64,000 nucleotides of DNA, taken from contig NZ_JAULRU010000705.1 in the NCBI RefSeq assembly GCF_030518155.1, forward strand, positions 62,001-126,000, in the 5' to 3' direction. The notes beneath the pieces were generated by a model. The model was not told where the DNA came from and searched no databases. It worked only from the letters and a program-made list of their open reading frames with translations. Every line of letters begins with the position of its first letter. Position 1 is the stretch's first letter. Position numbers and translations under genes: made by a program. This document shows positions 11,271 through 24,236 of this stretch, one piece after another. The DNA comes from Gilvimarinus gilvus (GTDB taxonomy: Bacteria > Pseudomonadota > Gammaproteobacteria > Pseudomonadales > Cellvibrionaceae).

Positions 11271-11320
11271 TTACATGTAATTTCTTGACAGTATCACATG
11301 TAACAAACTAAGATGATCCT
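11271..11320 (+). promoter_or_regulatory. Promoter with two CATGTAA operator-like repeats
   Basis: A consensus -35 TTGACA (11285-11290), an 18-base spacer and a -10 TAAGAT (11309-11314) directly precede the ATG at 11321. The palindrome TTACATGTAA (11271-11280) lies just upstream of the -35. A near copy, TCACATGTAA (11294-11303), lies inside the spacer. The predicted transcription start falls at or next to the ATG and there is no ribosome binding site, so the message would be leaderless. A protein bound at the spacer repeat would block RNA polymerase. Confidence 0.65.
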
Positions 11321-11953
11321 ATGAAAGCGAAATCTTCTGCACACTATCAGCGCGAATATCGAAAAAGGCTCCGTGAACAGGGCCTGGTTAAGAAAGAAGT
11401 CTGGATACTTCCAGAAAATGCGGGACAACTTGCTGAGCTAGAGAAGTTGCTAAGAGAGCGTGGCGAGTCGTTTGCTTTAAAAGGAGAAAAAAGCATGACT
11501 GAGAGACGAGAGAATAGTTGGGATACTACCAGCCTATATGAAGCCCTTACCAATACAGAGTTGCTTACCAGTGATATGGCGAGTGTCGAGCTGATTGAGG
11601 GGGTAGACAAGGCGATACACATCACCATGAAAGAGTATGGTGACTTGCCGATTTTCCTAACCGTGGCGGGCGATCAGATTATTGTTGAGTCTGTACTTTG
11701 GTCGGTAGACGAAGTGGTTGATGTTGCTCGATTCAACGATTTAATTCTTAGGACTCATAAATACTTTCCGCTTTCTACCATTAGCCTTGACCAGATGGGC
11801 GCCAACGGAGATTACTATCAAATGTTCGGAGCCCTTAGTTCCACGTCATTGTTGCACAATGTGGTCTTTGAAATCGAGGTGTTGGCGAGCAATGTGATTC
11901 AGGCGACCGAGGCCTATGGCGAACATTTAAAACTATCCGTCGCGGCGAGTTAA
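11321..11953 (+). CDS. YjfI-like DUF2170 family protein with ribbon-helix-helix-like N-terminus
   Basis: This 210-residue protein matches the E. coli YjfI/DUF2170 family as I remember it: an N-terminal basic segment (HYQREYRKRLREQGLVKKEV) followed by WILPENAGQLAELEKLL, then a globular domain from about residue 60. The N-terminal strand-then-two-helices pattern resembles a ribbon-helix-helix DNA-binding fold. That would make it a candidate autoregulator of the CATGTAA repeats in its own promoter; this is inference. The role of DUF2170 is not established. It heads an operon and is followed after 14 bases by the PspA-like gene, the same pairing as yjfI-yjfJ in E. coli. ATG 11321 has no Shine-Dalgarno sequence. 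Confidence 0.75.
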   Translation: MKAKSSAHYQREYRKRLREQGLVKKEVWILPENAGQLAELEKLLRERGESFALKGEKSMTERRENSWDTTSLYEALTNTELLTSDMASVELIEGVDKAIHITMKEYGDLPIFLTVAGDQIIVESVLWSVDEVVDVARFNDLILRTHKYFPLSTISLDQMGANGDYYQMFGALSSTSLLHNVVFEIEVLASNVIQATEAYGEHLKLSVAAS

Positions 11954-11967
11954 TCAGGAGCATAGTA

Positions 11968-12651
11968 ATGAACATTTGGTCAAAAATGATGACAGCCCTT
12001 AAAGGCGGCGTAAACGAAGCCGGTGAAGCCATTGTAGATAGCCAGGCTTTGCGGATTCTGGATCAGGAAATTCGCGAATCTGCCGAGGAGCTAAAGCAAT
12101 CAAAAGACAGTCTCGCCGATATACTGGCGCGCAAAAAGGTCGCTGAAGAGCGGTGCGCTCAGATTGAAGGTCAGATCAAAGAGCACGAAAGTTATGCGAT
12201 AAAAGCGCTAGACAAGGGCGAAGAGGCGCTCGCCCGCGAGGTGGCGGAAAAGCTAGCTGACCTTGAGAATCAGTTGGCAAATGAGGCTGACGCAGCAAAA
12301 GGCTTTGAGCAAAGCCTGACGTCACTGCGCATTGCGATAAAGCAGGCCGAGCAAAACCTGAAACGCTTCAAACAGCAAGTGGATACGGTAAAGGCCACGG
12401 AGAATGTGCAAAGAGCGCAGGCCGCCGTGGCAGAAAGACATAGTGGCTCGCAGTCAAAAATGAGAACCGCAATGGACTCATTGGAACGAATTAAAGAAAA
12501 GCAAGCACTGAAAGCGGCACAAATGGAAGCGGCTAAAGAAATATCCGAAGAAACTACGGAGGCGTCTTTAAAGTCCAAACTTGAAGAAGCAGGTATTGCG
12601 CCCAGTGGCAAAAGTGCCGATGACATTCTTGAGCGTTTAAAGAAAAAATAA
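11968..12651 (+). CDS. PspA/IM30 family protein (YjfJ-like)
   Basis: PspA/IM30/Vipp1 proteins are bacterial relatives of ESCRT-III that polymerise on damaged membranes. The 227 residues are almost entirely predicted coiled-coil helix, rich in Glu, Lys, Ala and Gln. They begin with an amphipathic NIWSKMMTALKGGVNEAGE segment typical of the YjfJ branch. A short helix near the C-terminus (PSGKSADDILERLKKK) ends the protein. ATG 11968 follows AGGAG. It sits between the DUF2170 gene and the OB-fold and flotillin genes. pspB, pspC and pspF are not nearby, so this is not the classical phage-shock operon. Confidence 0.88.
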   Translation: MNIWSKMMTALKGGVNEAGEAIVDSQALRILDQEIRESAEELKQSKDSLADILARKKVAEERCAQIEGQIKEHESYAIKALDKGEEALAREVAEKLADLENQLANEADAAKGFEQSLTSLRIAIKQAEQNLKRFKQQVDTVKATENVQRAQAAVAERHSGSQSKMRTAMDSLERIKEKQALKAAQMEAAKEISEETTEASLKSKLEEAGIAPSGKSADDILERLKKK

Positions 12652-12660
12652 CAGCTATTA

Positions 12661-12683
12661 GGGCGGCCGTGTTTTGGTCGCCC
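12661..12683 (+). other. Intraoperonic hairpin between pspA-like and OB-fold genes
   Basis: GGGCGGCC (12661-12668) and GGTCGCCC (12676-12683) form an 8-bp stem with one G-T pair. There is no T run, so it is more likely an mRNA-stabilising or processing hairpin than a terminator. Confidence 0.4.
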
Positions 12684-12710
12684 ATCAAAATAGAATAGGG
12701 ACGTGGGCCA

Positions 12711-13400
12711 ATGTTTACAATCTTTTTTCTCGAAGATATGGACCCTTTTTATCAGAATATATCTTCCTTTCCCACCGTAATCTTTACGTTTCTACTGGTC
12801 ATAACGGTTTTGTACTGGTTGGTGGCTGTATTGGGTTTTATCGATATCGAATTTTTGGATTTCGATCTTCCGGACCCGGACGGCGTCGGCGCACAGGGTG
12901 ATGGGCTTAGCAATCCCGAGATGCTAGCAGGTTTAATGTTGCGCTTTGGCCTACACGGTGTGCCGTTAACGATTATTATTTCATTTATTGCTTTGTTCGG
13001 CTGGCTAATTTCCTACTATATCGTGCACTTCCTGTTTGGTTTTATTCCTGGCGGGTTTGTCAGTTTTCTGGTTGGAATACCCGTTCTGTTGTTCTGCCTA
13101 TATCTCGCGGTAATGGTGACAGCGGTGGTGATAAAACCGATTCGCCCCCTTTTTAAGAGCTCCCAGTACCAGGCCATTAAATATGTGGTGGGACAAACGG
13201 CTATTGTAAGAACATCAGTAGTCGATGAGACATTTGGCGAAGCAATTTTAGAAGACGGTGGTGCTGGTTTACTACTGAAAGTTAGGTCTACATCTGGCGA
13301 GACCTTTAGCAAGGGTGATCGTGTGGTTCTACTCGAGCACCTAAAAGAGAAAAACACTTTCCGGGTTATATCGGAAAAAGAGTTCTTAGGAAACGAATAA
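12711..13400 (+). CDS. OB-fold membrane protein of the YqiJ type
   Basis: A 229-residue inner-membrane protein. Hydrophobic segments lie at about 18-45 and as a pair between about 85 and 140. A soluble C-terminal beta-rich domain (about 155-225) has an OB-like pattern: VGQTAIVRTSVVDETFGEA, an internal Gly-rich turn and GDRVVLLE. This is the layout of YqiJ, encoded next to flotillin (yqiK) in E. coli, and of NfeD-like partners of SPFH proteins. Such proteins are thought to organise or assist flotillin assemblies. ATG 12711 follows AGGGACG; ATG 12738 is an alternative. Flotillin starts 34 bases downstream. Confidence 0.75.
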   Translation: MFTIFFLEDMDPFYQNISSFPTVIFTFLLVITVLYWLVAVLGFIDIEFLDFDLPDPDGVGAQGDGLSNPEMLAGLMLRFGLHGVPLTIIISFIALFGWLISYYIVHFLFGFIPGGFVSFLVGIPVLLFCLYLAVMVTAVVIKPIRPLFKSSQYQAIKYVVGQTAIVRTSVVDETFGEAILEDGGAGLLLKVRSTSGETFSKGDRVVLLEHLKEKNTFRVISEKEFLGNE

Positions 13401-13434
13401 TTACTTTAACTAATTTGGAAACGGAGTAACCACT

Positions 13435-15399
13435 ATGGCTGATCTATCAGGCCTTATGCCAATCGCAATTGGCGCTGGCATTTTCTTTATTGTCTTAATG
13501 GGGTTTGCGGCTCTATTCAAAGCCTTCTATGTCAAGGTCGATCAGGGTACGGCCCTTATCGTCAATGATATGTCAGCGAAACCCAAAGTGCATTTTACCG
13601 GTGCTCTGGTCTATCCGATCATCTACAAAAAAGAGATGATGAAAATCTCTTTGATTACGCTCGAAGTCGACAGAAGAGGCAAGGATGGCCTTATTTGTGC
13701 GGATAATATGCGAGCTGATATCACGGTTGCCTTCTACTTAAGAGTCAATGAAACCGCGGAGGATGTTTTGAAAGTGGCCAAATCCATTGGCGCCAATCGG
13801 GCCTCTGACAAAGGCGCGGTTAACGAACTGTTCAACGCGAAGTTTTCTGAGGCGCTAAAAACTGTAGGTAAACAAATTGACTTTGTTAAGTTATTTGAAG
13901 ACCGCTTAGAGTTCCGCGAAAAGATTATTCGAGTTATCGGGGAAGATCTCAACGGTTACGTGCTTGAAGACGTGGCAATCGACTATCTTGAACAAACACC
14001 AAAATCGTCACTCGACCCTACCAATATTCTCGACTCCGAGGGTATCAAAAAGATTACAGAGCTCACCGCGAAGCAGAATGTGACAACAAACATGCTGGAG
14101 CGCGATGAAGAGCTCGCCGTAAAGAAAAAGAACGTTGAAACCGTGGAGGCGATGCTAGAGCTGGATCGTCAGCAGGCGGATGCCGAAGCTAAGCAAGAAA
14201 GAGAAATTGCCACTATACGCGCACGCGAAGAAGCTGAAACCAAAAAGGTTCAGGAAGAAGAAAGGCTCAAATTTGAAACAGCAACCATTCAGGCCGATCA
14301 AGACCTTTCCGTTCAAACGGAGAACCAAAAACGCGAAATTGAAGTGGCCGAGCAAAATCGCCAAAGAGCCGTGGTTATTGAAGTTGAAAAAGTAACCCGG
14401 GCAAGGGACCTGGAAATTGTTTCCAGAGAGCGCGAAGTAGAACTCCAACGTATAGCCGCGGAAAAAGCTGTAGAGGTAGAGAGAAAAGAAATAGCGAATG
14501 TTATTCGCGAACGTATCGCTGTTGACAAAACAGTCGCCATTGAAGAAGAGCGAATTAAAGAGGTTCGTGAAATTTCAGAAGCGGATCGCGCCAAGCAAAC
14601 ACAAGTGCTTGCCGCCGAGGCGCAAGCCGACGAAGAGAAGGTCAAGCAGGTCAAGGCTGCTGAGGCCGAAGAGCTTGCGGCAAAACACAAAGCCGTAGAA
14701 ATCACTACTATTGCACAAGCTAACCTTGAAGCATCGGCTAAAGAAGCCGACTCCAAGAAAAAGCTTGCTGAAGGCGTTCAGGCTGAGCGAGCCGCTCCTG
14801 GTCTGGCTGACGCTAAAGTGCAGGAAGCCAAAGCGGATGCGTTGGAAAAAGAAGGTGTTGCAGAGGCCAACGTTATTCGCGCGAAAGGGGATGCCGAAGC
14901 AGACGCTCACTTAGGAACGGGTAAAGCAGAAGCTGAAGTAATTGCAGCAAAAGGCGAATCAGAAGCCAAAGCCGCGAGAGAAATTGGTATGTCAAATGCC
15001 GAAGTAACACGCGAACAGTTCAAAGCCGAAGCTGATGGTCTGGTCGATAAATTTGGCGCGATGAACAGCATGAGTGAAGATGCGCGCGCACACGAAGAAT
15101 ATCGTATGGGCTTAGAGACTGCGCTTAAAGAGGCATTGGCTTCTATTGACGCCGGTAAAGATATCGCGAAGGAGAATGCAGAAGTTCTTGCTGTTGCGCT
15201 GCAAAAAGCGAAAATCGATATTGTTGGCGGTGAGGATCATTTCTTCGACAACTTTGCGAAATCGCTGTCTATCGGTAAAGCTGTCGATGGTCTGGCTGAC
15301 AAAAGTAGCACGATTCAGTCGTTAATCGATCGTGTAATTTCCGGAAAGCCCATTATTCCAAGCTTTACATCGACAGATAAAGAAGAAACCCAAGGATAA
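13435..15399 (+). CDS. Flotillin-like SPFH/band 7 protein (YqiK type)
   Basis: Flotillins form large membrane-associated cages or scaffolds. The 654 residues begin with one membrane helix (about 8-30). An SPFH/band 7 domain follows (about 30-210, with VDQGTALIVNDMSAKPKVHF and DVAIDYLEQTPKSSLDPTNI). Next comes a very long Glu/Ala/Lys-rich coiled coil (about 220-560) and a flotillin C-terminal tail. The length and order match the YqiK/flotillin-1 branch. ATG 13435 follows CGGAG. The preceding gene is the usual OB-fold partner; the following gene is the giant AAA+ protein. A hairpin in the gap (15414-15433) may lower expression of the downstream genes. Confidence 0.9.
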   Translation: MADLSGLMPIAIGAGIFFIVLMGFAALFKAFYVKVDQGTALIVNDMSAKPKVHFTGALVYPIIYKKEMMKISLITLEVDRRGKDGLICADNMRADITVAFYLRVNETAEDVLKVAKSIGANRASDKGAVNELFNAKFSEALKTVGKQIDFVKLFEDRLEFREKIIRVIGEDLNGYVLEDVAIDYLEQTPKSSLDPTNILDSEGIKKITELTAKQNVTTNMLERDEELAVKKKNVETVEAMLELDRQQADAEAKQEREIATIRAREEAETKKVQEEERLKFETATIQADQDLSVQTENQKREIEVAEQNRQRAVVIEVEKVTRARDLEIVSREREVELQRIAAEKAVEVERKEIANVIRERIAVDKTVAIEEERIKEVREISEADRAKQTQVLAAEAQADEEKVKQVKAAEAEELAAKHKAVEITTIAQANLEASAKEADSKKKLAEGVQAERAAPGLADAKVQEAKADALEKEGVAEANVIRAKGDAEADAHLGTGKAEAEVIAAKGESEAKAAREIGMSNAEVTREQFKAEADGLVDKFGAMNSMSEDARAHEEYRMGLETALKEALASIDAGKDIAKENAEVLAVALQKAKIDIVGGEDHFFDNFAKSLSIGKAVDGLADKSSTIQSLIDRVISGKPIIPSFTSTDKEETQG

Positions 15400-15413
15400 A
15401 AATTTGCGGGTAA

Positions 15414-15433
15414 CAGGGGGCAGCTGCTCCCTG
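15414..15433 (+). terminator. Possible intraoperonic attenuator hairpin
   Basis: CAGGGGGCAGCTGCTCCCTG folds into a near-perfect hairpin (5 outer pairs, one mismatch, then an inner GCAGCTGC palindrome), followed by CTTCTTT. It lies between flotillin and the giant ATPase and could cause partial termination or processing, giving less of the large protein than of flotillin. Confidence 0.4.
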
Positions 15434-15466
15434 CTTCTTTAGGTGTACAGAGTAAAAGGTGGTGAT

Positions 15467-18400
15467 ATGGAACAACCGGATGTGGCGGTGGAAAACAATG
15501 ATGTTGTCGATAGCGCAGTAGCCGAAGGTGGTGCCTATGAAATCATACGCAAGCGGCTAGAAGCTCAAAGCAAAGCTCTTTTCGAACAGGCCTCGAATCT
15601 CAACGCTGCGCGACTTGAGGAGTTTGGTAGCGCGGATATGGAAGTTAAGGCGCGCGTTCGGGTGCGCACTGAAAACAACTGCATTGCCCGCGATATTGTG
15701 CAGGTTGGTGAGTACCTCCTATTTGGTTACAACGTTTTTATTGGGTTAAAAAAAGAAACCAAAGTTGAAGACGTTTTCGCATTATTTAAACTTGAAGAAA
15801 CCAATGAAAGTTATGAGATGAAGCCGGCTCCCTTTGCGGGTACTTTTTTGTCTCAGTCTGGCTTTGTCAACGACTTCGAGGAGCTCTATCGCTACTACAA
15901 GCAAACCCGATTGACCGAACTGACTATTAAAGATGGAAAGCTGTTAGCCGGATTTCAAATCGGTGAGCGCCCGGATGATATACGTGTTTTCCGCTGGTCG
16001 GTGTCGGCCGATGGCACAGAGGTTCAGTATATTGATAACCGCGGCGAACGAGACATAAAACTACCTTCGCGGTATGACTTTGAGTGGGTAAACACCACGC
16101 GTGATGATATTGTGCATGGTCGCCACGCTCATATCAATATTCTCGATACCGTTTTTGTAGAGACCACAAACGGTGACCTCACAATAAAAACGGAGAACAA
16201 TACGGAAGACGGGCTGGGCGTCTATCGCGAGCCTGTGGAAGATCGAACCCAATCTCTCGATGATGCAGAAATAGCCTATGCGTCGGTAGGCGACCTTATA
16301 CTAGTGCGTGTGAAACCCTACCGTGAAGACGAGTTTCGTTATCTTATATTCAATTCGTTGACTGAGACAGTTATTAGGGTTGATGCGATTGGCCAGTCAT
16401 GCGTCCAGCTACCAGAAGATCACGGGCTAGTCTTTCCCGGCGGATACTATTTGCAAACCGGAGAGTTCAAAAATTTCGACGAAGTCTCGGTTAGTTTAAA
16501 GTTTAAGCGCTCCATCCGATCGCCAAACGGTGAGGATGTACTCTACATATTCTACGATCCGATTGATGGAGTCGTAGGGCTTTTCGCTTACAATTTAATT
16601 GAAAAAAAGCTTCAGAATCCGATATACGGCCACGGTTATGCACTCGCCGAGAATGGGCAGTTGGTTATTTTTTCGGCAGAAAGTGAGCCAACGCGCGTAC
16701 ACCCCATGCAGGTATGGCAAACACCCTATCAAAGTGCAGAATTTGCGAGCAAGGTACCCAGTAGCCAAACCTTTCTCGGTAAAATTGGTAATGCGGAGTT
16801 AGTTCGAGGTGTTTCGGACCTGTTCAGTATAAGTCGTATTATCGATGATCAGTCTGTATCGCTTCGCCTATACGAAGAGCTTAGCAAAGCAGCCCAGAAA
16901 ATATTTGACGATCACTACTGGATTAGTACCGAACAAACCCAAGCGATCGTTGACATTGTAAAGGATATTGCAGCGACATCAGAGCTGGTTATTGATGAAT
17001 TTGAAAAGGTTCAAAGTATACGTCTGCAGTCAGATAAAACCATGTCTGAGGCCGAGCGGAATCAGCAAATACTGGTTCAATCGGTGCAATCTGAAAATTG
17101 GGTTGCAGCACAAGAGTATGTAGATGCTCTGGCAAAAATACGCCAGCAACGCGGTCACCTGACCACCATTAAAGATTATCGCTATATCGATGTTGTCAGA
17201 ATTGAAGAGCTCGATGAACAGCTACGGGAGGTTGAAGCAACGGTATCTAAAAAAACCGTTGAATTTCTATCACACGAGAACTCCCTAGACCCTTTTTTGC
17301 AGAAAATTGAAGACCTCAATAGCGAAGTTGAAAAAGCGAATACCAATGCGAGCCTGCAGCCGCTTATAGAGTCTATAGAGCAGTCAGCTTTTAGTCTTGA
17401 TTTGCTGTCTGAGTTGATGGGCACACTAAAGGTGGATGATGCTACTGTTAGAACTCGCATCATCGACGCCATTTCTACAGTTTATGCGAAGCTTAATCAG
17501 AGCAAGGCCAATGCAACACACAAACGAAAGAATCTAGGGTCAGAGGAGGCGAAATCTCAATTTTCGGCTCAATTTAAACTGTTCTCTCAAAGTATAACCA
17601 ATGCATTGGGCCTTTCCACAACCCCAGAAAAGTGCGACGAACAGTTATCGCGCCTGCTTGTTCAGTTGGAGGAATTTGAAAGTCAATTTAGTGATTTTGA
17701 CCAGTTTCTGACCGATATAATGGACAAGCGTGAAGAAGTCTATGAGTCCTTTGAAAGCCACAAGCAAAAGTTGCTTGACGCCAGACAGCGCAAGGCGCAA
17801 TCGGTCGGTGATGCTGCAGAGCGTATTTTGCTGAGTGTCGAAAAACGTTCGTTAAAATTCACAGATTCAGACAAGTTAAATACTTATTTCGCGTCAGACG
17901 CGCTCGTACTAAAGTCAAAAGAGCTGGTAGAACAGTTGCGCGAACTCGACAGCTCGGTAAAAGCCGATGATATTGAGTCGCGCTATAAAGCAATTAAAGA
18001 GCAAGCGCTGCGGTCGTTGCGCGATAAAAGTGACATTTTTGAAGATGGTGGCAATGTTATTAAGCTGGGCCCCCGCCACAAGTTTTCAGTTAACACCCAG
18101 GAGCTTGACCTTACGATAATACCGCGCGAAGGAAAACTGAACTTACATTTAACAGGAACAAATTATTTTGAGCCGGTGGAAGATCCCGGTCTACAGGATT
18201 CAGAAGACTTCTGGGATCTATCTCTGGAGTCTGAAACGCCGGACGTTTATCGCGGAGAGTTTTTGGCGTCGCTCATTATTGATGCGGCTCATAAGCAGCA
18301 ACATGGCCTCTCGCTGGACAAGTTAAACAAAGGGCTTCTTGACGAGGACGTGCTGGCGACAATTGTGAAGGACTTTGCCGCTCCCAGGTACAAAGAGGGG

Positions 18401-20752
18401 TATGAAAGAGGTATTCATGATCACGATGCGGTCGTCTTGCTGAAAGAAATACTGCCCGCACTGGAGCGCGCAGACCTCCTGCGTTTTGATCCATTGAGTC
18501 GCGGTTTAGCCCAAATATTCTGGGCAAATATAAACAGCCAGGTAAAACGTAAACCGAAACAATCCGAGCGCGAATTATTGTCTTTTAACACCTGGCCAGA
18601 ACGCGCTCAGTCTGCGTCGCACATGCAAACGGTATTTGCCAGTACAGAGGCGCTCGAGCTTTTAGCGACTGAAGTGCGCGAAGCACTTTGTGTTTTCATC
18701 GAGCGTCACCCAATACCGGTATCGAGTATTGATATTCGCCGGGCTGCGGACTATCTAGTCGCAGAGCTTAGCCGCGAACGTGTTGAATTTATTGGCAGTA
18801 AGTACGCAACACAGCTAGCCGAAGAGCTCAAGCGGTCTATGGACGATAATACCTGGCGCCGCTACCAGATGGCGCTGGAAAAAATGATGGGTTGGCCAGC
18901 GGAGCGCTGGAATCTATCCGTGGCATGGTTGCAAGCGCTCATCGTGGAAAAGGACTTGGAGCATTTGCGCCGTTATATACCGGAAGCAGTAGCGCTTATT
19001 AACGCCGATGAGAGGTTGGAGCGACGTTTTACGGAGGCTGATCTGGAGCTGACGTTTAACGGATTACTCGGCGATCACCCGCGTATCGAAAACAGACAAA
19101 CAAGCTTTGCGTTGGACGCCTACCTTCAGCGTATGGAGCAACACAAATTCGAAGTCATACCTACCTATCAGAAGTATTTAAACCTGCGACAGGAAGTAAT
19201 TGGCCGCAACCGCGAAGCATTGCGGTTAGAGGAATATAAGCCAAGACCGCTGAGTTCGTTCGTGCGCAACCGGTTAATCAACGAATCTTATTTGCCACTA
19301 ATTGGCGACAATTTAGCAAAACAAATGGGAACGGTGGGGGAAAACAAGCGTACTGATCTTATGGGCCTGTTGATGATGATTTCCCCTCCGGGCTACGGTA
19401 AAACCACTTTGATGGAATATGTGGCAAACCGTCTGGGGTTGATATTCATGAAAATCAACTGTCCCTCTTTGGGGCACGACGTAATGTCCTTGGACCCGGA
19501 CCAGGCTCCCAACGCAACCGCCAGACAGGAGTTGTATAAGCTAAATCTGGCCCTGGAAATGGGCAACAATGTCATGCTGTATTTAGATGATATTCAACAT
19601 ACACACCCGGAATTTCTGCAGAAATTTATATCCTTGTGTGATGGTACCCGGCGTATAGAAGGTGTTTGGAAGGGAAGAACAAAAACCTATGATATGCGTG
19701 GCAGAAAATTCTGTGTCGTTATGGCGGGTAACCCTTACACGGAATCAGGGGAGGCATTCAAAATTCCGGATATGCTTGCTAACCGGGCGGATATATACAA
19801 TCTGGGCGATATACTGGGTGGAATGGACGAGCAGTTTGCGTTGAGTTACGTTGAGAATGCGCTGACGTCCAATCCGGTATTGGCACCGCTAGCCGTTCGA
19901 GAAATGAATGATGTTTATAAACTCATCGATATGGCAAAAGGCGTGAACATTGCTACGACTGACTTGAGCCACTCCTATAGCGGGGCGGAAATTAACGAAA
20001 TCAAACAAGTACTGCAAAAGATGTTCGTTATTCAAGACGTTATTCTCAAAATTAACCAGCAGTATATTGCCTCTGCTGTGCAGAACGACAAATATCGAAC
20101 AGAGCCGCCCTTTAAGCTGCAAGGTAGCTATCGGAACATGAACAAAATGACGGAGAAGGTATCTGCCGTCATGAACGAACGCGAATTAATGCAAATGATT
20201 GAGGATCACTACCAGGGTGAGGCACAGTTATTAACCACAGGCGCAGAAGATAACCTACTGAAGTTGGCTGAAATTCGCGGAAATATGAGCCCAGAGCAGC
20301 AATCGCGTTGGCAGCAAATAAAAACAGACTTCCAGCGTAATAAAGCCATGGGTGGCGATGACGCAAATACGGGCGGCAAGATAGTCGTCCAATTGGCTGA
20401 TTTGGTGAGTGGGGTACAGACCCTGTCAAATGCTGTGATCAATACGAAAAAAGTTGAATCCAGTGATACCGCAGCAAGTGAAGCGCTAACCGCAATGATA
20501 GATAAACTGTCAGAGGTCGTGAAAAAGTCAAAACCCTCCATTAAAGTTGTCAATGAACCTGTGCCTGGTATCGACAAAGTACTGACCGTACTAGCTGAGA
20601 CAATAGAGCATAGTATATTTCCTCTGGTGAGGAGTATGGACAAGAAGCTTGAAATTGATTTGCGTACCCATGAAAAAATGTCTGACATTTCAAACCAATT
20701 GAGGTCACTGGAGGCGGAAGTGGCGAGTACCCCAAATAAAGGAACGAGCTAG
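15467..20752 (+). CDS. Giant AAA+ ATPase with N-terminal DUF3686 and coiled coil ('DNA repair ATPase' family)
   Basis: The 1761-residue protein has an N-terminal beta-rich region (about 20-450) that fits DUF3686 as I remember it, a long coiled-coil middle (about 490-830), an alpha-helical region (about 880-1270), and one AAA+ ATPase near the C-terminus. The ATPase shows Walker A GYGKTT (about 1309-1314), Walker B LYLDDIQ (Asp pair about 1374-1375) and sensor-1 Asn in VVMAGNPY (about 1422). Such proteins are often annotated as DNA repair ATPases, but I know of no evidence for that role. The operon suggests work on membrane or PspA/flotillin polymers. ATG 15467 is chosen over GTG 15443 because AAAGGTGG lies just upstream. 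No signal peptide. Confidence 0.8.
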   Translation: MEQPDVAVENNDVVDSAVAEGGAYEIIRKRLEAQSKALFEQASNLNAARLEEFGSADMEVKARVRVRTENNCIARDIVQVGEYLLFGYNVFIGLKKETKVEDVFALFKLEETNESYEMKPAPFAGTFLSQSGFVNDFEELYRYYKQTRLTELTIKDGKLLAGFQIGERPDDIRVFRWSVSADGTEVQYIDNRGERDIKLPSRYDFEWVNTTRDDIVHGRHAHINILDTVFVETTNGDLTIKTENNTEDGLGVYREPVEDRTQSLDDAEIAYASVGDLILVRVKPYREDEFRYLIFNSLTETVIRVDAIGQSCVQLPEDHGLVFPGGYYLQTGEFKNFDEVSVSLKFKRSIRSPNGEDVLYIFYDPIDGVVGLFAYNLIEKKLQNPIYGHGYALAENGQLVIFSAESEPTRVHPMQVWQTPYQSAEFASKVPSSQTFLGKIGNAELVRGVSDLFSISRIIDDQSVSLRLYEELSKAAQKIFDDHYWISTEQTQAIVDIVKDIAATSELVIDEFEKVQSIRLQSDKTMSEAERNQQILVQSVQSENWVAAQEYVDALAKIRQQRGHLTTIKDYRYIDVVRIEELDEQLREVEATVSKKTVEFLSHENSLDPFLQKIEDLNSEVEKANTNASLQPLIESIEQSAFSLDLLSELMGTLKVDDATVRTRIIDAISTVYAKLNQSKANATHKRKNLGSEEAKSQFSAQFKLFSQSITNALGLSTTPEKCDEQLSRLLVQLEEFESQFSDFDQFLTDIMDKREEVYESFESHKQKLLDARQRKAQSVGDAAERILLSVEKRSLKFTDSDKLNTYFASDALVLKSKELVEQLRELDSSVKADDIESRYKAIKEQALRSLRDKSDIFEDGGNVIKLGPRHKFSVNTQELDLTIIPREGKLNLHLTGTNYFEPVEDPGLQDSEDFWDLSLESETPDVYRGEFLASLIIDAAHKQQHGLSLDKLNKGLLDEDVLATIVKDFAAPRYKEGYERGIHDHDAVVLLKEILPALERADLLRFDPLSRGLAQIFWANINSQVKRKPKQSERELLSFNTWPERAQSASHMQTVFASTEALELLATEVREALCVFIERHPIPVSSIDIRRAADYLVAELSRERVEFIGSKYATQLAEELKRSMDDNTWRRYQMALEKMMGWPAERWNLSVAWLQALIVEKDLEHLRRYIPEAVALINADERLERRFTEADLELTFNGLLGDHPRIENRQTSFALDAYLQRMEQHKFEVIPTYQKYLNLRQEVIGRNREALRLEEYKPRPLSSFVRNRLINESYLPLIGDNLAKQMGTVGENKRTDLMGLLMMISPPGYGKTTLMEYVANRLGLIFMKINCPSLGHDVMSLDPDQAPNATARQELYKLNLALEMGNNVMLYLDDIQHTHPEFLQKFISLCDGTRRIEGVWKGRTKTYDMRGRKFCVVMAGNPYTESGEAFKIPDMLANRADIYNLGDILGGMDEQFALSYVENALTSNPVLAPLAVREMNDVYKLIDMAKGVNIATTDLSHSYSGAEINEIKQVLQKMFVIQDVILKINQQYIASAVQNDKYRTEPPFKLQGSYRNMNKMTEKVSAVMNERELMQMIEDHYQGEAQLLTTGAEDNLLKLAEIRGNMSPEQQSRWQQIKTDFQRNKAMGGDDANTGGKIVVQLADLVSGVQTLSNAVINTKKVESSDTAASEALTAMIDKLSEVVKKSKPSIKVVNEPVPGIDKVLTVLAETIEHSIFPLVRSMDKKLEIDLRTHEKMSDISNQLRSLEAEVASTPNKGTS

Positions 20753-20753
20753 T

Positions 20754-21323
20754 ATTACTACCGTTGAAAAATCTCTATACCTGCGCCTACGTATTATTGC
20801 AGGCCTGGTTTTGCTTTTACTCGCCGTACATATTATTAATCTAGGTATGGGGGGGGAATTGATTCAATATGGAATCATACCCCGCGACAAACAACACTGG
20901 TTTGGTGTATTGACGGCGCCGTTTATCCACGCAAGCTACAGTCATTTGCTTAACAATATAATTGGCCTTAGTGTGTTGGCCGGCATTTTTTTACTGCGCT
21001 CAATTCGTCAGTTTTTTACTGCCAGTGTCTTTATTATTGTTGTTGGCGGTACCCTGGTTTGGGCTTTCGGACGAAACGCTGTTCACATAGGAGCCAGTGG
21101 CTGGATTTTTGGGTTGTGGAGTTTTCTCATTGTCGCTGCTTGGTTTGAGCGAAGTTTAAAGAGTTTCGCTATCGCGATGTTAGTGGTATTTCTATATGGT
21201 GGGATGATTTACGGAGTACTACCAACTCGGGAAGGTGTCTCTTTTGAGTCTCATTTGTTCGGCGCATTGGCTGGTATTATTTTTTCCGCAATAGTTGGAA
21301 CAAAAAAACTTGGTTGCGGATAA
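20754..21323 (+). CDS. Rhomboid-family intramembrane serine protease
   Basis: The frame encodes about six membrane helices. The rhomboid signatures are present: HASYSHLLNN after the first helix, the catalytic serine in GASG, and the catalytic histidine in FESHLFGALAG. Rhomboids cleave membrane-spanning helices. The start is a problem. The first usual start codon (TTG 20811) lies in the middle of the first helix. The frame upstream (SLYLRLRIIAGLV...) completes that helix but has no ATG, GTG or TTG. An ATT codon at 20754 has AAAGGAA ten bases upstream and sits directly after the stop of the giant ATPase gene, so I give that provisional start (189 residues). CTG 20781 is another option. Confidence 0.75.
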   Translation: MTTVEKSLYLRLRIIAGLVLLLLAVHIINLGMGGELIQYGIIPRDKQHWFGVLTAPFIHASYSHLLNNIIGLSVLAGIFLLRSIRQFFTASVFIIVVGGTLVWAFGRNAVHIGASGWIFGLWSFLIVAAWFERSLKSFAIAMLVVFLYGGMIYGVLPTREGVSFESHLFGALAGIIFSAIVGTKKLGCG

Positions 21324-21359: not shown

Positions 21360-23954
21360 CTACTTGTCTTCGAGGAGCAATAAAAATTCTTCACCGGGGA
21401 TAGGCTTACCAAAGAAATAGCCCTGGCCAAAGTCACAGTTCCATTTCATCAAAATAGCCAACTGACGATCGGTTTCCACGCCTTCCGCGACTACTTGCAA
21501 GCCCAAACTGTGTGCAAGGCTGAGGACGGCTTTAGTTAGAGATTCAGGTGTTTTCTGCACTCCCAGTTGGCTGACAAAAGATTTATCAACTTTTAGAATG
21601 TCGATAGGAAAGCGAGTTAGATAACTGAGCGATGAATAGCCAGTACCAAAATCATCGATGGCTAAACTTACACCCAACGACTTAAGCTTATTAAGGGTTG
21701 ACAGTATATGGTCAGATTCATCAATCAGTAAGCGCTCAGTGATTTCCACAGTAATGTGTAAATTTTGAGCTGCCTTTTCAATAATTGCTATCCATAACTC
21801 TAACGAATCGTCTTTACTACTGAATACCCTTGGCGACACGTTAACCGAAAGGCCTATGTCTTTACCGGTCTGCCTGTTTAACTGCGTAATATAGTCACTA
21901 GCGGTCTGTAATACATATCGGTCAATCTCATTGATGCGACCGGTTTCCTCTGCCAGAGAAATAAACGCTTCTGTTGTGATGTTGGTCGACGAATTGCTCC
22001 ATCGAACTAAGGCTTCACACTTGCAAATGGTGTGCGACGCTAAATCGATTATGGGTTGATAATGAACATTCAGTTCTCGGTTCTGTATAGCGTGAATTAA
22101 TTGGGTCGTAAGATTATGCTTTTTTTCCGATTCTATTTGCATGATCTTGGTAAAATACTGCCAGCCGTTGCGACCCGATCTCTTCACCTCGTACATGGCT
22201 TTGTCAGCGTTTGATACCAGCGACTCGGCATTTGTACCGTCATCCGGGTAAAGCGATATTCCGATACTAGCGCCACAAAATATGGTATTCTGATCGATAG
22301 AAAATGGCTTGTTGATACTAGATATAATACTCTGAGAAATGTTCACCGGTATTTTACCGTCGCTCAAATCAATCAATATGACAATAAACTCGTCTCCGCT
22401 ATAACGGGCAACGGTATCAGTTGTCCGGACACAGCTTTTGATTCTGGCAGCTACCTCCCTGAGAAGTTGATCACCGATTGCGTGGCCTAAGTTATCGTTC
22501 ACCGGCTTGAAATTGTCTAGATCAATAAACAAAATGGCGAGTTTCTCGCCGTTTCTTTGACTCAGATGAATTGCTTTGTTAAGACGATTGGAAAGAAGCA
22601 AGCGATTGGGCAAACCTGTGAGTTGGTCGTAAATAGCCTGATGCTGAATTTTATTGGTAATAATTTTACGCTGAGTTATATCTTGTACAGAGCCGAGAAC
22701 AGTGTAGGGCGGAGAAGTATCGTCCAGTGGTTTTCCTTTGAATCTAACCCAGTGTTGATCGCTATCTGGCGCCGTGAATTGTAGCTCTACATCAAAGGGT
22801 TTTCCACGAGAGGCTTTTTTAAAATGTCCGGCTAGGTCATTAGCCTGCTTCGGGTCAAATCTACGCAGTATCTCCGCTAAGCTGGGGTTGGGGGTATCCA
22901 TACACAGGATGTTCCCGGCTTGCTCGCTCCAAAGACTTAACACTAACGAGTCTCGCCTAGGGGTAAGCTGCCAGCCGCCGACTAACGCCAACTTACCCAC
23001 CTCTTCTAATAATGTCTGATTTTTATTTAGAGCAATCTGAAAATCCTGTTCCTGTGTCGTTTGCCGAAAGCGATATAAAACCAGAGCGCTTAAGGTAGCA
23101 CCTATGAGCAAAATCGCCAGGCGCAGCGCCCAGTAGGTAGTACCCTGACCCCCGGTTACGTTCGAGTTGGTTCTCGCCGCGAGTTGCCAAGTGCCATTGG
23201 CAACCGTTAATTCTGTGCGTTGGGTCAGAGGGTCGTCGAACAGTAAAGGGTCGCCAAAAAAGACGGCGCCGTCACGGCCTTTACCGTCGAAGCCTCGTAT
23301 GCCAATCTCAACAGGGAGATTGCTGTCGAGTATACCGGCTGCCTTATAAAGCTTTTGCGTATAGATAGGCGCTGAAACAATGCCCCAAAATTGATCGTCT
23401 GCGGTGATGACTGCGGCGCGGCCAATAACCGCTTCGCCACCCTGCACCATTTGTACCGGTCCCGCCAAAATCATATCGCCGCGTTTTGTTAAGCTGGCCA
23501 CAGCGGGAAGCTGTTCGATATTGGTTCGATAATTGAGACCGACGGCGCGTCGATTATTGTTATCCAGAGGGTAGATCAGTTCGACAACGAGATCGGGCGC
23601 AGCCGCAACATTAACCAGTAGAGGCTCCTGGCGAAAGATCGTACTGGCATAGCGTTCAAAATCACGCTGATTGATATCTGGGTATATCGCAATATGCGCG
23701 GCTAAGCCGCTGAGTAACGAAAGATTATTGTTGAGGACACCACTGAGTTCGGCACTGAGTCGGCTAAGCTCTTGGGTAGCGATCAATTGCTGCTGTTGAC
23801 CTTCCACCTGAGCGATATAGCGTTCAAGGCTTAGCTCAACGAGTAGCATGGTGACGATCACTATCAGGACACTAATAATGGCCCAGCGTTTGGCAGTCGC
23901 TCGAATGGATGAGTGGTGATTCATATATGCAGGGTATTGGTTGTCTACTGCCAA
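21360..23954 (-). CDS. CHASE-PAS-GGDEF-EAL c-di-GMP signalling protein
   Basis: An inner-membrane protein of 864 residues. It has a first helix (about 25-45), a periplasmic CHASE-type sensor domain (about 75-270), a second helix (about 285-303), a PAS domain (about 325-440), a GGDEF domain and an EAL domain. The GGDEF motif reads SGDEF, a variant that may be weak or inactive as a cyclase. The EAL domain keeps EALVRW, the Glu in VEITER, the DDFGTGYSS loop, KVDKSF and AEGVE, so phosphodiesterase activity is likely. The longest frame starts at TTG 23954; ATG 23924 (854 residues) is equally plausible, and neither has a clear ribosome binding site. It is divergent from the histidine kinase at 24237. 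Confidence 0.9.
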   Translation of the reverse strand: MAVDNQYPAYMNHHSSIRATAKRWAIISVLIVIVTMLLVELSLERYIAQVEGQQQQLIATQELSRLSAELSGVLNNNLSLLSGLAAHIAIYPDINQRDFERYASTIFRQEPLLVNVAAAPDLVVELIYPLDNNNRRAVGLNYRTNIEQLPAVASLTKRGDMILAGPVQMVQGGEAVIGRAAVITADDQFWGIVSAPIYTQKLYKAAGILDSNLPVEIGIRGFDGKGRDGAVFFGDPLLFDDPLTQRTELTVANGTWQLAARTNSNVTGGQGTTYWALRLAILLIGATLSALVLYRFRQTTQEQDFQIALNKNQTLLEEVGKLALVGGWQLTPRRDSLVLSLWSEQAGNILCMDTPNPSLAEILRRFDPKQANDLAGHFKKASRGKPFDVELQFTAPDSDQHWVRFKGKPLDDTSPPYTVLGSVQDITQRKIITNKIQHQAIYDQLTGLPNRLLLSNRLNKAIHLSQRNGEKLAILFIDLDNFKPVNDNLGHAIGDQLLREVAARIKSCVRTTDTVARYSGDEFIVILIDLSDGKIPVNISQSIISSINKPFSIDQNTIFCGASIGISLYPDDGTNAESLVSNADKAMYEVKRSGRNGWQYFTKIMQIESEKKHNLTTQLIHAIQNRELNVHYQPIIDLASHTICKCEALVRWSNSSTNITTEAFISLAEETGRINEIDRYVLQTASDYITQLNRQTGKDIGLSVNVSPRVFSSKDDSLELWIAIIEKAAQNLHITVEITERLLIDESDHILSTLNKLKSLGVSLAIDDFGTGYSSLSYLTRFPIDILKVDKSFVSQLGVQKTPESLTKAVLSLAHSLGLQVVAEGVETDRQLAILMKWNCDFGQGYFFGKPIPGEEFLLLLEDK

Positions 23955-24236
23955 AATTTAATACATCGTTGCAATGACTATAGCCGTATTTGGCGCGACA
24001 TGCTTAAAAATACGCCAACGAAAACAGTTGTGGTTCTTTTATTGGTGTCGAAGTGGCCCTATGCGCTTAATAATTGAGCTAGTTGGAGAAAGCGGGCGCT
24101 CTTAAGCTGCGGGCGATCAATGCTCACAAGCCTTCGCCGGGCAATGTTTATGGTGTTCTGATGATATATTGCTTTGGCACCAGATTATCAGACTACAATT
24201 TCTAATAGCCTCGGGTAACTAGTTAAGGATCGCCGC

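What the first reader, a model, noticed from the sequence alone, without database searches (positions are those of the whole stretch)
11271..21323. Six-gene membrane-maintenance operon: DUF2170, PspA/IM30, OB-fold protein, flotillin, giant AAA+ ATPase, rhomboid
Six same-strand genes with short gaps, read from one strong promoter, join an ESCRT-III-like polymer former, an SPFH scaffold with its usual OB-fold partner, a 1761-residue AAA+ ATPase and an intramembrane protease. Parts are known separately (yjfI-yjfJ and yqiJ-yqiK in E. coli), but I know of no assigned function for the whole. By analogy with ESCRT-III and Vps4, the ATPase could remodel PspA or flotillin assemblies, with the rhomboid trimming a membrane partner. 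It is inserted beside gyrB in a block otherwise absent from the Pseudomonas-type order.
Basis: partly seen in the sequence, partly recalled or inferred. Interest (0 to 1): 0.82.

Follow-up and report, generated by a model that had tools for sequence, protein, structure and literature searches.

The report
Self-repressed membrane-repair operon (bac/PspA)
A six-gene bacterial membrane-maintenance operon, already known in Pseudomonas as bac, begins with a protein that very probably carries an overlooked DNA-reading arm and shuts off its own operon through a conserved pair of DNA palindromes.

Summary
In detail: six same-strand genes (11321-21323) encode DUF2170, PspA/IM30, a YqiJ/NfeD-like membrane protein, an SPFH flotillin, a DUF3686 AAA+ ATPase and a rhomboid. 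The set is not unassigned: it is the bac operon of Pseudomonas aeruginosa, and an ESCRT-like reading is in print. New here is the control circuit. BacA has an N-terminal domain of about 50 residues that the published 16-kDa protein and crystal lack; the Pseudomonas frame opens 59 codons earlier. Palindromes TYACATGTRA lie upstream of bacA in 81 of 81 loci examined, usually two, 21-24 bp apart, one inside the -35/-10 spacer, and are nearly confined to that promoter. They occur with the N-terminal domain (13 of 14 DUF2170 genes that have it, 1 of 16 that lack it); palindrome centre and a domain residue changed together once. The promoter abuts the ATG, so bacA mRNA should be leaderless. Best reading: BacA is a direct autorepressor whose chaperone-like domain binds PspA, tying membrane state to transcription. 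The sixth gene varies (rhomboid, PLD-like or other); Pseudomonas also has a bacA-pspA-rhomboid version. The sensing direction and all bench claims are untested.

The parts
11271..11280 (.). operator 1, TTACATGTAA, just upstream of the -35
   Evidence: only exact copy in the 4.78 Mb assembly; conserved in orthologues
11285..11314 (+). promoter TTGACA-18-TAAGAT, -10 ends 6 nt before the ATG (leaderless start predicted)
11294..11303 (.). operator 2, TCACATGTAA, inside the -35/-10 spacer
11321..11470 (+). bacA N-terminal domain (first 50 residues), predicted DNA-reading arm (helix, low-confidence stretch, helix)
11321..11953 (+). bacA: DUF2170 with CesT-like C-terminal domain; NCBIfam NF050185 BacA 307.6 bits over cut-off 300
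11968..12651 (+). bacB: PspA/IM30, the only one found in this genome
12711..13400 (+). bacC: YqiJ/short-NfeD-like membrane protein (weak Pfam match)
   Evidence: orthologue named short NfeD in PMC13086221
13435..15399 (+). bacD: SPFH/Band 7 flotillin-like protein
15443..20752 (+). bacE: DUF3686 + DUF7902 + single AAA+ module (Walker A PPGYGKT at residue 1315); likely start ATG 15467
20811..21323 (+). rhomboid protease, sixth gene; GxSG Ser96 and His148 conserved

Best explanation
This is a bac operon: a PspA-type membrane-maintenance system under its own one-protein control. BacA is a two-domain autorepressor. Its N-terminal arm reads TYACATGTRA; two copies flank and fill the -35/-10 region of the bacA promoter, so bound BacA blocks RNA polymerase (inferred from anatomy and conservation). 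Its C-terminal CesT/YbjN-like chaperone domain binds BacB, the PspA polymer former (predicted and reported by others, not tested here). The likely logic: when BacB is drawn to damaged membrane, BacA is drawn off DNA with it and the operon is derepressed (inferred; the sign is open). The products work as a sub-membrane hub: BacB covers and remodels membrane, BacD/BacC form an SPFH scaffold, BacE is the ATP-driven remodeller acting chiefly on that scaffold, and the rhomboid (in other species a PLD-family protein) processes a membrane partner (all inferred). bacA mRNA is predicted to be leaderless, while bacB, bacC and bacD have ordinary ribosome sites.
For: Operator: 81 of 81 bacA upstreams (80 named loci + window) hold a copy with at most 1 mismatch to TTACATGTAA, 47 exact; 3 of 3908 control stretches from the same loci do. 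Wider set: 239 sites T[CT]AC-NN-GT[AG]A in 40,260 upstream bases of 122 loci against 20 in 1.80 Mb of the rest. Nearly operon-specific: one exact copy in the own genome; the paired pattern was found in 23 of 32 genomes searched, each time at the bacA promoter, with one further site in G285. Tied to the N-terminal domain: among 30 DUF2170 loci from 58 relatives, not chosen for that domain, 13 of 14 with it have a site and 1 of 16 without it (p 2e-6, kinship not corrected). In another sample, 15 DUF2170 matches that do not reach the domain and 3 bacCDE loci without bacA show no T[CT]ACATGT[AG]A site, only stray one-mismatch words. Change together: 109 loci with K or R at residue 25 have only AT centres, 10 with H have at least one GC, GT or AC centre; one event on the tree. 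Anatomy: the inner site lies between conserved TTG and TAnnnT. The arm resembles phrog_536 'transcriptional regulator' in 10 of 17 and MazE-like in 9 of 17 sequences, weakly; UrfF 'plasmid repression protein' E 0.003. Published: the bacA mutant has BacB-F up 6.1- to 13.5-fold (PMC10948618, section read); BacA-BacB pairing predicted at 0.981 (PMC13092808, section read); an SPFH protein localises PspA in B. subtilis (PMC8581546, abstract).
Against: No binding was measured. The arm has no solved relative, its Pfam matches for the window protein are below cut-off, and its middle stretch (21-30) is modelled below pLDDT 50. The arm-operator change is a single evolutionary event. One locus with the arm (L049 = L254) lacks this site and has TTACAGGTAATATTACCTGTAA instead; one without it (L255) has a lone TTACGCGTAA. 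Two KREFW loci (L194, L196) show no full site by the regular expression, only a near one. The published bacA mutant is a transposon insertion with a resistance cassette, so part of the rise could be read-through from the cassette. Others propose a sigma-54 promoter. In Pseudomonas the -35/-10 pair is weak (often 7 of 12). The PspA-sensing step rests on other people's prediction and an unpublished remark.
Confidence: 0.77

Rival explanations
1. BacA controls the operon only by protein-protein contact, as T3SS chaperones such as ExsC do, on a sigma-54 promoter; another protein reads the palindromes.
For: Published view (PMC10948618); CesT/ExsC/YbjN-like fold of the crystallised domain, seen also in the model of the window protein.
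Against: The crystallised chain 8Q8O is 146 aa and aligns only to residues 66-205; the arm was absent from it. Operators track the arm and are nearly confined to this promoter. With my three strict sigma-54 patterns no match was found within 250 bases before or 240 after the full-length start in L193, only four loose GG-N10-GC; the papers' own site sequence is in a figure that I could not see.
Confidence: 0.12
2. One reading: BacE is a Vps4-like motor that disassembles PspA (ESCRT-III-like) polymers, helped by the rhomboid.
For: AAA+ with intact Walker motifs; bacB and bacE in one operon; a similar proposal in Ravi et al.. The three genomes with bacC-D-E apart from bacA-B still carry an unlinked short DUF2170-PspA pair.
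Against: bacC-D-E occur without adjacent bacA-B (L043, L050, L051) and bacA-B without bacE; no Vps4/MIT match; nearest folds of a low-confidence model are Skd3/ClpB, RuvB, MCM and NorQ.
Confidence: 0.3
3. Quality-control hub built on the flotillin: SPFH scaffold + AAA+ + rhomboid, as in the mitochondrial SLP2-YME1L-PARL complex, with PspA as an add-on.
For: bacD and bacE followed by rhomboid in 43 of 80 named loci and in L051 without bacA-B; GxSG Ser and the His kept in 69 and 68 of 71 rhomboid rows, some of them repeats of one genome; PARL-YME1L-SLP2 hub described in PMC7966987 (passages).
Against: BacE has no peptidase domain in Pfam; the rhomboid also travels with bacA-bacB without BacD or BacE, and is missing or replaced in others.
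Confidence: 0.25
4. Anti-phage defence operon.
For: Patchy presence (0 of 7 congeners); large AAA+ protein.
Against: PADLOC gives only weak matches for the coiled-coil BacB and none for the other five at E 0.1; the gene order is kept across many Pseudomonadales.
Confidence: 0.04

Closest known systems
bac operon bacABCDEF of Pseudomonas aeruginosa (PA14_16140-16200)
   Different: Sixth gene is a rhomboid here, a PLD-family protein in L193. Control by direct DNA binding and the 59-residue longer BacA are not described in the parts of the papers that I read.
CesT/Tir-PspA-band-7-AAA+ neighbourhood of Ravi et al. 2024 (PMC11237479)
   Same: Same components; ESCRT-like role proposed there; optional HKD (PLD) gene noted there (passages).
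   Different: 'Rhomboid' does not occur in its main text; ribbon-helix-helix is named there only for other operons; no operator or arm in the passages seen.
Classical PSP response (PspF-PspABC)
   Same: PspA/IM30 effector; feedback control through the PspA partner is plausible.
   Different: No PspB, PspC or PspF among the six genes; a predicted repressor in place of the PspF activator.
Bacillus subtilis YdjGHI-PspA
   Same: SPFH protein linked to PspA (PMC8581546, abstract).
   Different: No DUF2170, AAA+ or rhomboid named in that abstract.
Mitochondrial SLP2-PARL-YME1L hub
   Same: SPFH + rhomboid + AAA+ set (PMC7966987, passages).
   Different: Analogy only; BacE lacks a peptidase domain; no homology claimed.

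Membership tests
bac operon | bacA-B-C-D-E in order, BacA model over cut-off | tested here: met
   (307.6 of 300 bits)
bac operon | sixth gene as in P. aeruginosa (PLD) | tested here: not met
   rhomboid in the window, PLDc_2 in L193
bac operon | one transcript, BacA negative control | not testable with these tools
   published for P. aeruginosa only
PSP system | PspA/IM30 protein | tested here: met
   156.8 bits, cut-off 33.9
PSP system | PspB, PspC, PspF in the operon | tested here: not met
   none among the six; elsewhere in the genome not tested
SPFH-NfeD pair | Band 7 protein | tested here: met
   29.4 bits, cut-off 23.6, N-terminal 202 aa; whole protein gave no hit
SPFH-NfeD pair | NfeD/YqiJ partner by Pfam | tested here: inconclusive
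   YqiJ_N 14.1 bits under cut-off 23
ESCRT-III/Vps4 | Vps4-type AAA+ with MIT domain | tested here: not met
   no MIT or Vps4 domain in Pfam, no Vps4 in PDB by sequence; fold closest to Skd3/RuvB/NorQ in a model of mean pLDDT 70.8
Rhomboid protease | Rhomboid domain with Ser-His pair | tested here: met
   67.7 bits; Ser 69 of 71, His 68 of 71
Rhombosortase | TIGR03902 over cut-off | tested here: not met
   40.1 bits, cut-off 84
MazE-like / ribbon-helix-helix repressors | family model over cut-off | tested here: not met
   PF11455 12.7-13.9 bits for the window protein, cut-off 22; 9 of 17 arms match weakly
MazE-like / ribbon-helix-helix repressors | palindromic site at the own promoter | tested here: met
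   (presence of the site; binding not tested)
Anti-phage defence systems | match to a PADLOC model beyond coiled coil | tested here: not met

The most novel reading that the evidence does not exclude
BacA founds a new wiring of the envelope-stress response: one protein that is at once PspA's chaperone partner and a direct DNA-reading repressor with a leaderless mRNA, so that PspA's move to the membrane is converted to transcription without sigma-54, PspF or a two-component system. This arm-chaperone-PspA cassette is portable and drives at least three different membrane outputs (SPFH-AAA+ hub, rhomboid alone, ion channel-DUF350 set), with arm and operator changing together.
Probability: 0.42. 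Interest if true: 0.78.

Novelty: new variant of a known kind. Interest (0 to 1): 0.63.

Why it matters
The bac operon is reported to affect biofilm, swarming and virulence in P. aeruginosa, yet how it is controlled is open, and the protein studied (16 kDa; crystal 8Q8O) lacks the part that most likely touches DNA. If right, a late start codon hid a simple mechanism: a palindrome pair, a repressor and its PspA partner. It gives an immediate test (gel-shift with the 206-residue protein), a way to find such operons by their operator, and a PSP response that works without PspF. It also splits the operon into movable parts (A-B switch, C-D-E hub, rhomboid or PLD accessory), which guides pull-downs.

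Tried and rejected
Considered and rejected: (1) anti-phage reading: PADLOC gave nothing specific. (2) A regulon of many genes: the operator is nearly confined to the bacA promoter; the one extra paired site (G285:C1:227782) lies after an ORF that looks like a secreted carbohydrate-active protein (my reading of the translation) and may be accidental. (3) Calling the arm ribbon-helix-helix: AlphaFold gives helix 6-19, an unmodelled stretch 21-30 and helix 31-45, one helix after the presumed strand; the profile found no natural solved relative, only designed coiled coils. (4) Using the promoter scan as proof: no more hits than shuffles. (5) Independent-contrast proof of arm-operator change: only one event, so no test is possible. 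(6) Whole-length BacD against Pfam and PDB gave nothing; scanning its N-terminus helped. (7) Literature: TTACATGTAA 0 papers; searches by bac locus tags and by BacA with repressor terms listed no title or abstract on DNA binding by BacA; a leaderless-mRNA search gave nothing on bacA. Only open-licence PMC text was searched and most listed papers were not opened.

Selection notes: the 80 named loci are the best 80 of 152 and were found partly with a pattern from the arm itself (G[LF]VKKEVW), so arm presence there is partly by construction; operator presence is not. Some named loci are the same genomes as L038-L056. The samples not chosen for the arm are and 115/117. The regular expression missed three named loci that align over the arm (L076, L090, L116); 146 loci were cut to 122 by identical upstream DNA; one search used 119 of the 122. 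In one search, 75 of 81 bacA starts, 80 bacB, 28 bacC and 22 bacD starts entered; 8 bacD positions without a start codon were dropped, hits not beginning at residue 1 were left out, and the promoter was only sought ending 4-10 nt before the start codon. In one search the operator columns are fixed by the anchor, so only the other columns are informative.

Full report
OBSERVATION. Pfam/NCBIfam: DUF2170 (and NCBIfam BacA, 307.6 bits over a cut-off of 300), PspA_IM30, YqiJ_N-like (below cut-off), Band_7 (29.4 bits when the N-terminal 202 residues are scanned alone), DUF3686 + DUF7902 + AAA, and Rhomboid. One PspA/IM30 and one DUF2170 gene were found in the genome.

IDENTITY. The operon is bac. 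PMC10948618 (sections 3.4-3.6, the methods on structure, part 1 of 2 of the discussion, and passages) describes bacABCDEF in P. aeruginosa PA14 as one RT-PCR operon, BacB-F raised 6.1- to 13.5-fold in a bacA transposon mutant, and a crystal of BacA. PMC2587700 (passages) named the cluster and gives PA3732 as 16 kDa. PMC11237479 (passages) describes the same neighbourhood with an ESCRT-like proposal. PMC13086221 (passages) names the flotillin PaFlo3 and the PA14_16160 product a short NfeD, and finds about 20% less biofilm on deletion of paFlo3. PMC8855297 (one passage) lists the ATPase gene among the genes most affected in its RsmA analysis.

CONSERVATION. Of 19 fetched regions, 14 carry bacA, B, C, D and E in that order (in L041 and L049 the BacB match is only 29-35%); bacC-D-E without adjacent A-B in L043, L050, L051; bacA-B without C-E in L053 and L054. 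Among 80 named loci: A-E with rhomboid next 43; A-E without a recognised rhomboid in the locus 23 (8 of these have a PLD-like ORF next, read by eye from the translations; Pfam was run on the L193 one only); 6 with bacE at the locus end; 6 with bacA-B and no C-E (two of these, L072 and L111, are cut soon after bacB); 2 with A-D and no bacE in the locus. In 58 relatives, 15 have DUF3686 and all 15 have DUF2170; of the 43 without DUF3686, 11 have DUF2170 (Fisher 2.6e-7, kinship not corrected). The three genomes with bacC-D-E but no bacA-B beside them carry a short DUF2170 gene next to a PspA gene elsewhere. None of 7 congeners has DUF3686 or DUF2170. In two congeners (L232, L234) the EAL gene that follows the operon here lies directly after gyrB, in L233 after about 1.7 kb; in the other four it was not found within the 12 kb taken. 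One other genus of the family has the operon next to gyrB as well (L040). Whether the window species gained it or its congeners lost it was not settled.

THE HIDDEN ARM. The window BacA is 210 aa; its first 45 residues hold many of the invariant positions of 17 orthologues (K4, S6, A7, Y9, Q10, R11, R14, R16, R18, G21, V23-W28, L37, E41, L44, R45). The PDB chain 8Q8O is 146 aa and aligns to residues 66-205 only. In L193, whose protein is 99% identical to 8Q8O over 140 residues, the frame is open 59 codons upstream of the internal Met that begins MTEARVW: the full protein is 206 aa and 22.8 kDa, the product from the internal Met 147 aa and 15.9 kDa, matching the published 16 kDa. NCBIfam's BacA model (206 positions) includes the arm. 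The arm matches phrog_536 'transcriptional regulator' in 10 of 17 and MazE-like in 9 of 17 sequences, all weak; a plainly irrelevant family reached 4 of 17. AlphaFold: helix 6-19, helix 31-45, under pLDDT 50 at 21-30; C-terminal domain mostly 84-93; nearest structures 8Q8O, YbjN and T3SS chaperones.

THE OPERATOR. TTACATGTAA (11271-11280) and TCACATGTAA (11294-11303) frame the -35 of the bacA promoter. The exact 10-mer occurs once in the assembly, as does its backward-read control, so the genome count alone is not striking; the conservation is. 81 of 81 upstreams (80 named loci + window) hold a copy with at most one mismatch; 3 of 3908 random stretches of the same loci do. Over 122 distinct arm-bearing loci there are 239 sites in 40,260 upstream bases against 20 in 1.80 Mb of the remaining DNA. 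Spacing between neighbouring sites is 21-24 bp in 90 of 101 cases of the main (KKE) class and 45-46 or 52 bp in 17 of 19 of the other class. Aligned on the site nearest the gene in 100 loci, whose own columns are fixed by the anchor, the strongest other upstream columns are T at -8 and T, A, T at +15, +16, +20, i.e. -35 and -10 with the site between them. The paired pattern was sought in 32 genomes: found in 23, each time at bacA, plus one further place in G285; the backward-read control found none. Of the nine misses, three genomes have no arm-bearing bacA at the operon (G297, G326, G322); the other six have variant or differently spaced sites.

ARM AND OPERATOR GO TOGETHER. Of 32 DUF2170 matches, 30 had a locus: 13 of 14 with the arm have a site, 1 of 16 without. 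In the class sample the 15 matches that do not reach the arm (L008-L022) had only two stray one-mismatch words, and the three bacCDE loci without bacA four. In Pseudomonas a second class, bacA-bacB often with rhomboid and no C, D, E in the stretch fetched, was taken in 23 loci: a clear rhomboid match in 14, a partial one in 2 (L200, L211), none in 7. There, arms with KRE keep the AT centre, arms with KHE have TCACGCGTGA, TCACACGTGA or TCACGTGTGA as at least one site, and two loci without a recognisable arm (L200, L216) show no site by eye. L194 and L196 (KREFW) have no full site. On a tree of the C-terminal domains both traits change once, together: suggestive, one event.

LEADERLESS. A Shine-Dalgarno word of 4 or more is present at 6 of 75 bacA starts, 80 of 80 bacB, 27 of 28 bacC and 22 of 22 bacD starts. 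The initiation point is therefore predicted at or next to the A of ATG (inference). In L193 the same layout is seen, TTGAAG-17-TAGTGT-6-ATG, read from the sequence; this speaks against the sigma-54 promoter that the papers propose from sequence. The Pseudomonas three-gene class has its sites further upstream of the arm codons and was not tested for leaders.

MECHANISM. Shown by sequence: arm, operators, promoter geometry, gene sets. Published: BacB-F rise without BacA (transposon caveat); BacA-BacB pairing predicted at 0.981 (PMC13092808, section read); strong BacA-BacB interaction mentioned as unpublished. Inferred: BacA occludes RNA polymerase; BacB, when engaged at the membrane, takes BacA away. 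Effector side: the separable A-B and C-D-E blocks suggest that BacE acts mainly with BacD/BacC; its AAA+ part resembles Skd3/ClpB, RuvB and NorQ rather than Vps4, in a model of 70.8 mean pLDDT. The rhomboid keeps its GxSG Ser (69 of 71 rows) and His (68 of 71; some rows are the same genome twice) and goes with bacA-bacB even without C-D-E, so its substrate may be a PspA-linked membrane protein.

VERDICT. Known operon, new control logic: a new variant of the PSP kind, with a direct, cheap test.

Noticed in passing
L194-L216 (genomes of the Pseudomonas family set): bacA2-pspA2 version with its own diverged arm and operators (TCACATGTGA, TCACGCGTGA), followed by a clear rhomboid in 14 of 23 loci; no bacC-D-E within the stretches fetched.
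   Followed up: partly
L096, L116, L128, L131, downstream of bacB: Arm-bearing bacA-bacB with operators heads a different operon; in L116 it holds an ion channel, DUF2491 and DUF350 genes (Pfam), the others look alike by eye, so the same switch seems to serve a third output.
   Followed up: partly
L049 upstream of bacA: Variant operator TTACAGGTAATATTACCTGTAA with a BacA whose arm reads KKEVWINQ instead of KKEVWILP: a possible second specificity change.
   Followed up: no
G285:C1:227782-227811 (L141): The only paired operator away from bacA among 32 genomes searched, downstream of an ORF that looks like a secreted carbohydrate-active protein.
   Followed up: partly
L066, L068, L073 downstream of bacE: Where no rhomboid follows bacE, an MscS-like channel gene lies next (Pfam match for L066; L068 and L073 alike by eye); in L060 (Pfam) and L085 (by eye) a zinc-ribbon protein.
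   Followed up: partly
window 21360-26861: The operon is followed by a convergent CHASE-GGDEF-EAL gene and a MASE1-CHASE-PAS histidine kinase gene; the EAL gene follows gyrB without the bac block in congeners L232 and L234, and after about 1.7 kb in L233.
   Followed up: partly
window 20811: Rhomboid start uncertain: the listed start is TTG; some homologues are longer at the N-terminus, so a non-standard or later start is possible.
   Followed up: no
L095 between bacD and bacE: About 3.6 kb of extra DNA separates bacD and the bacE match in a genome titled Methylococcales.
   Followed up: no
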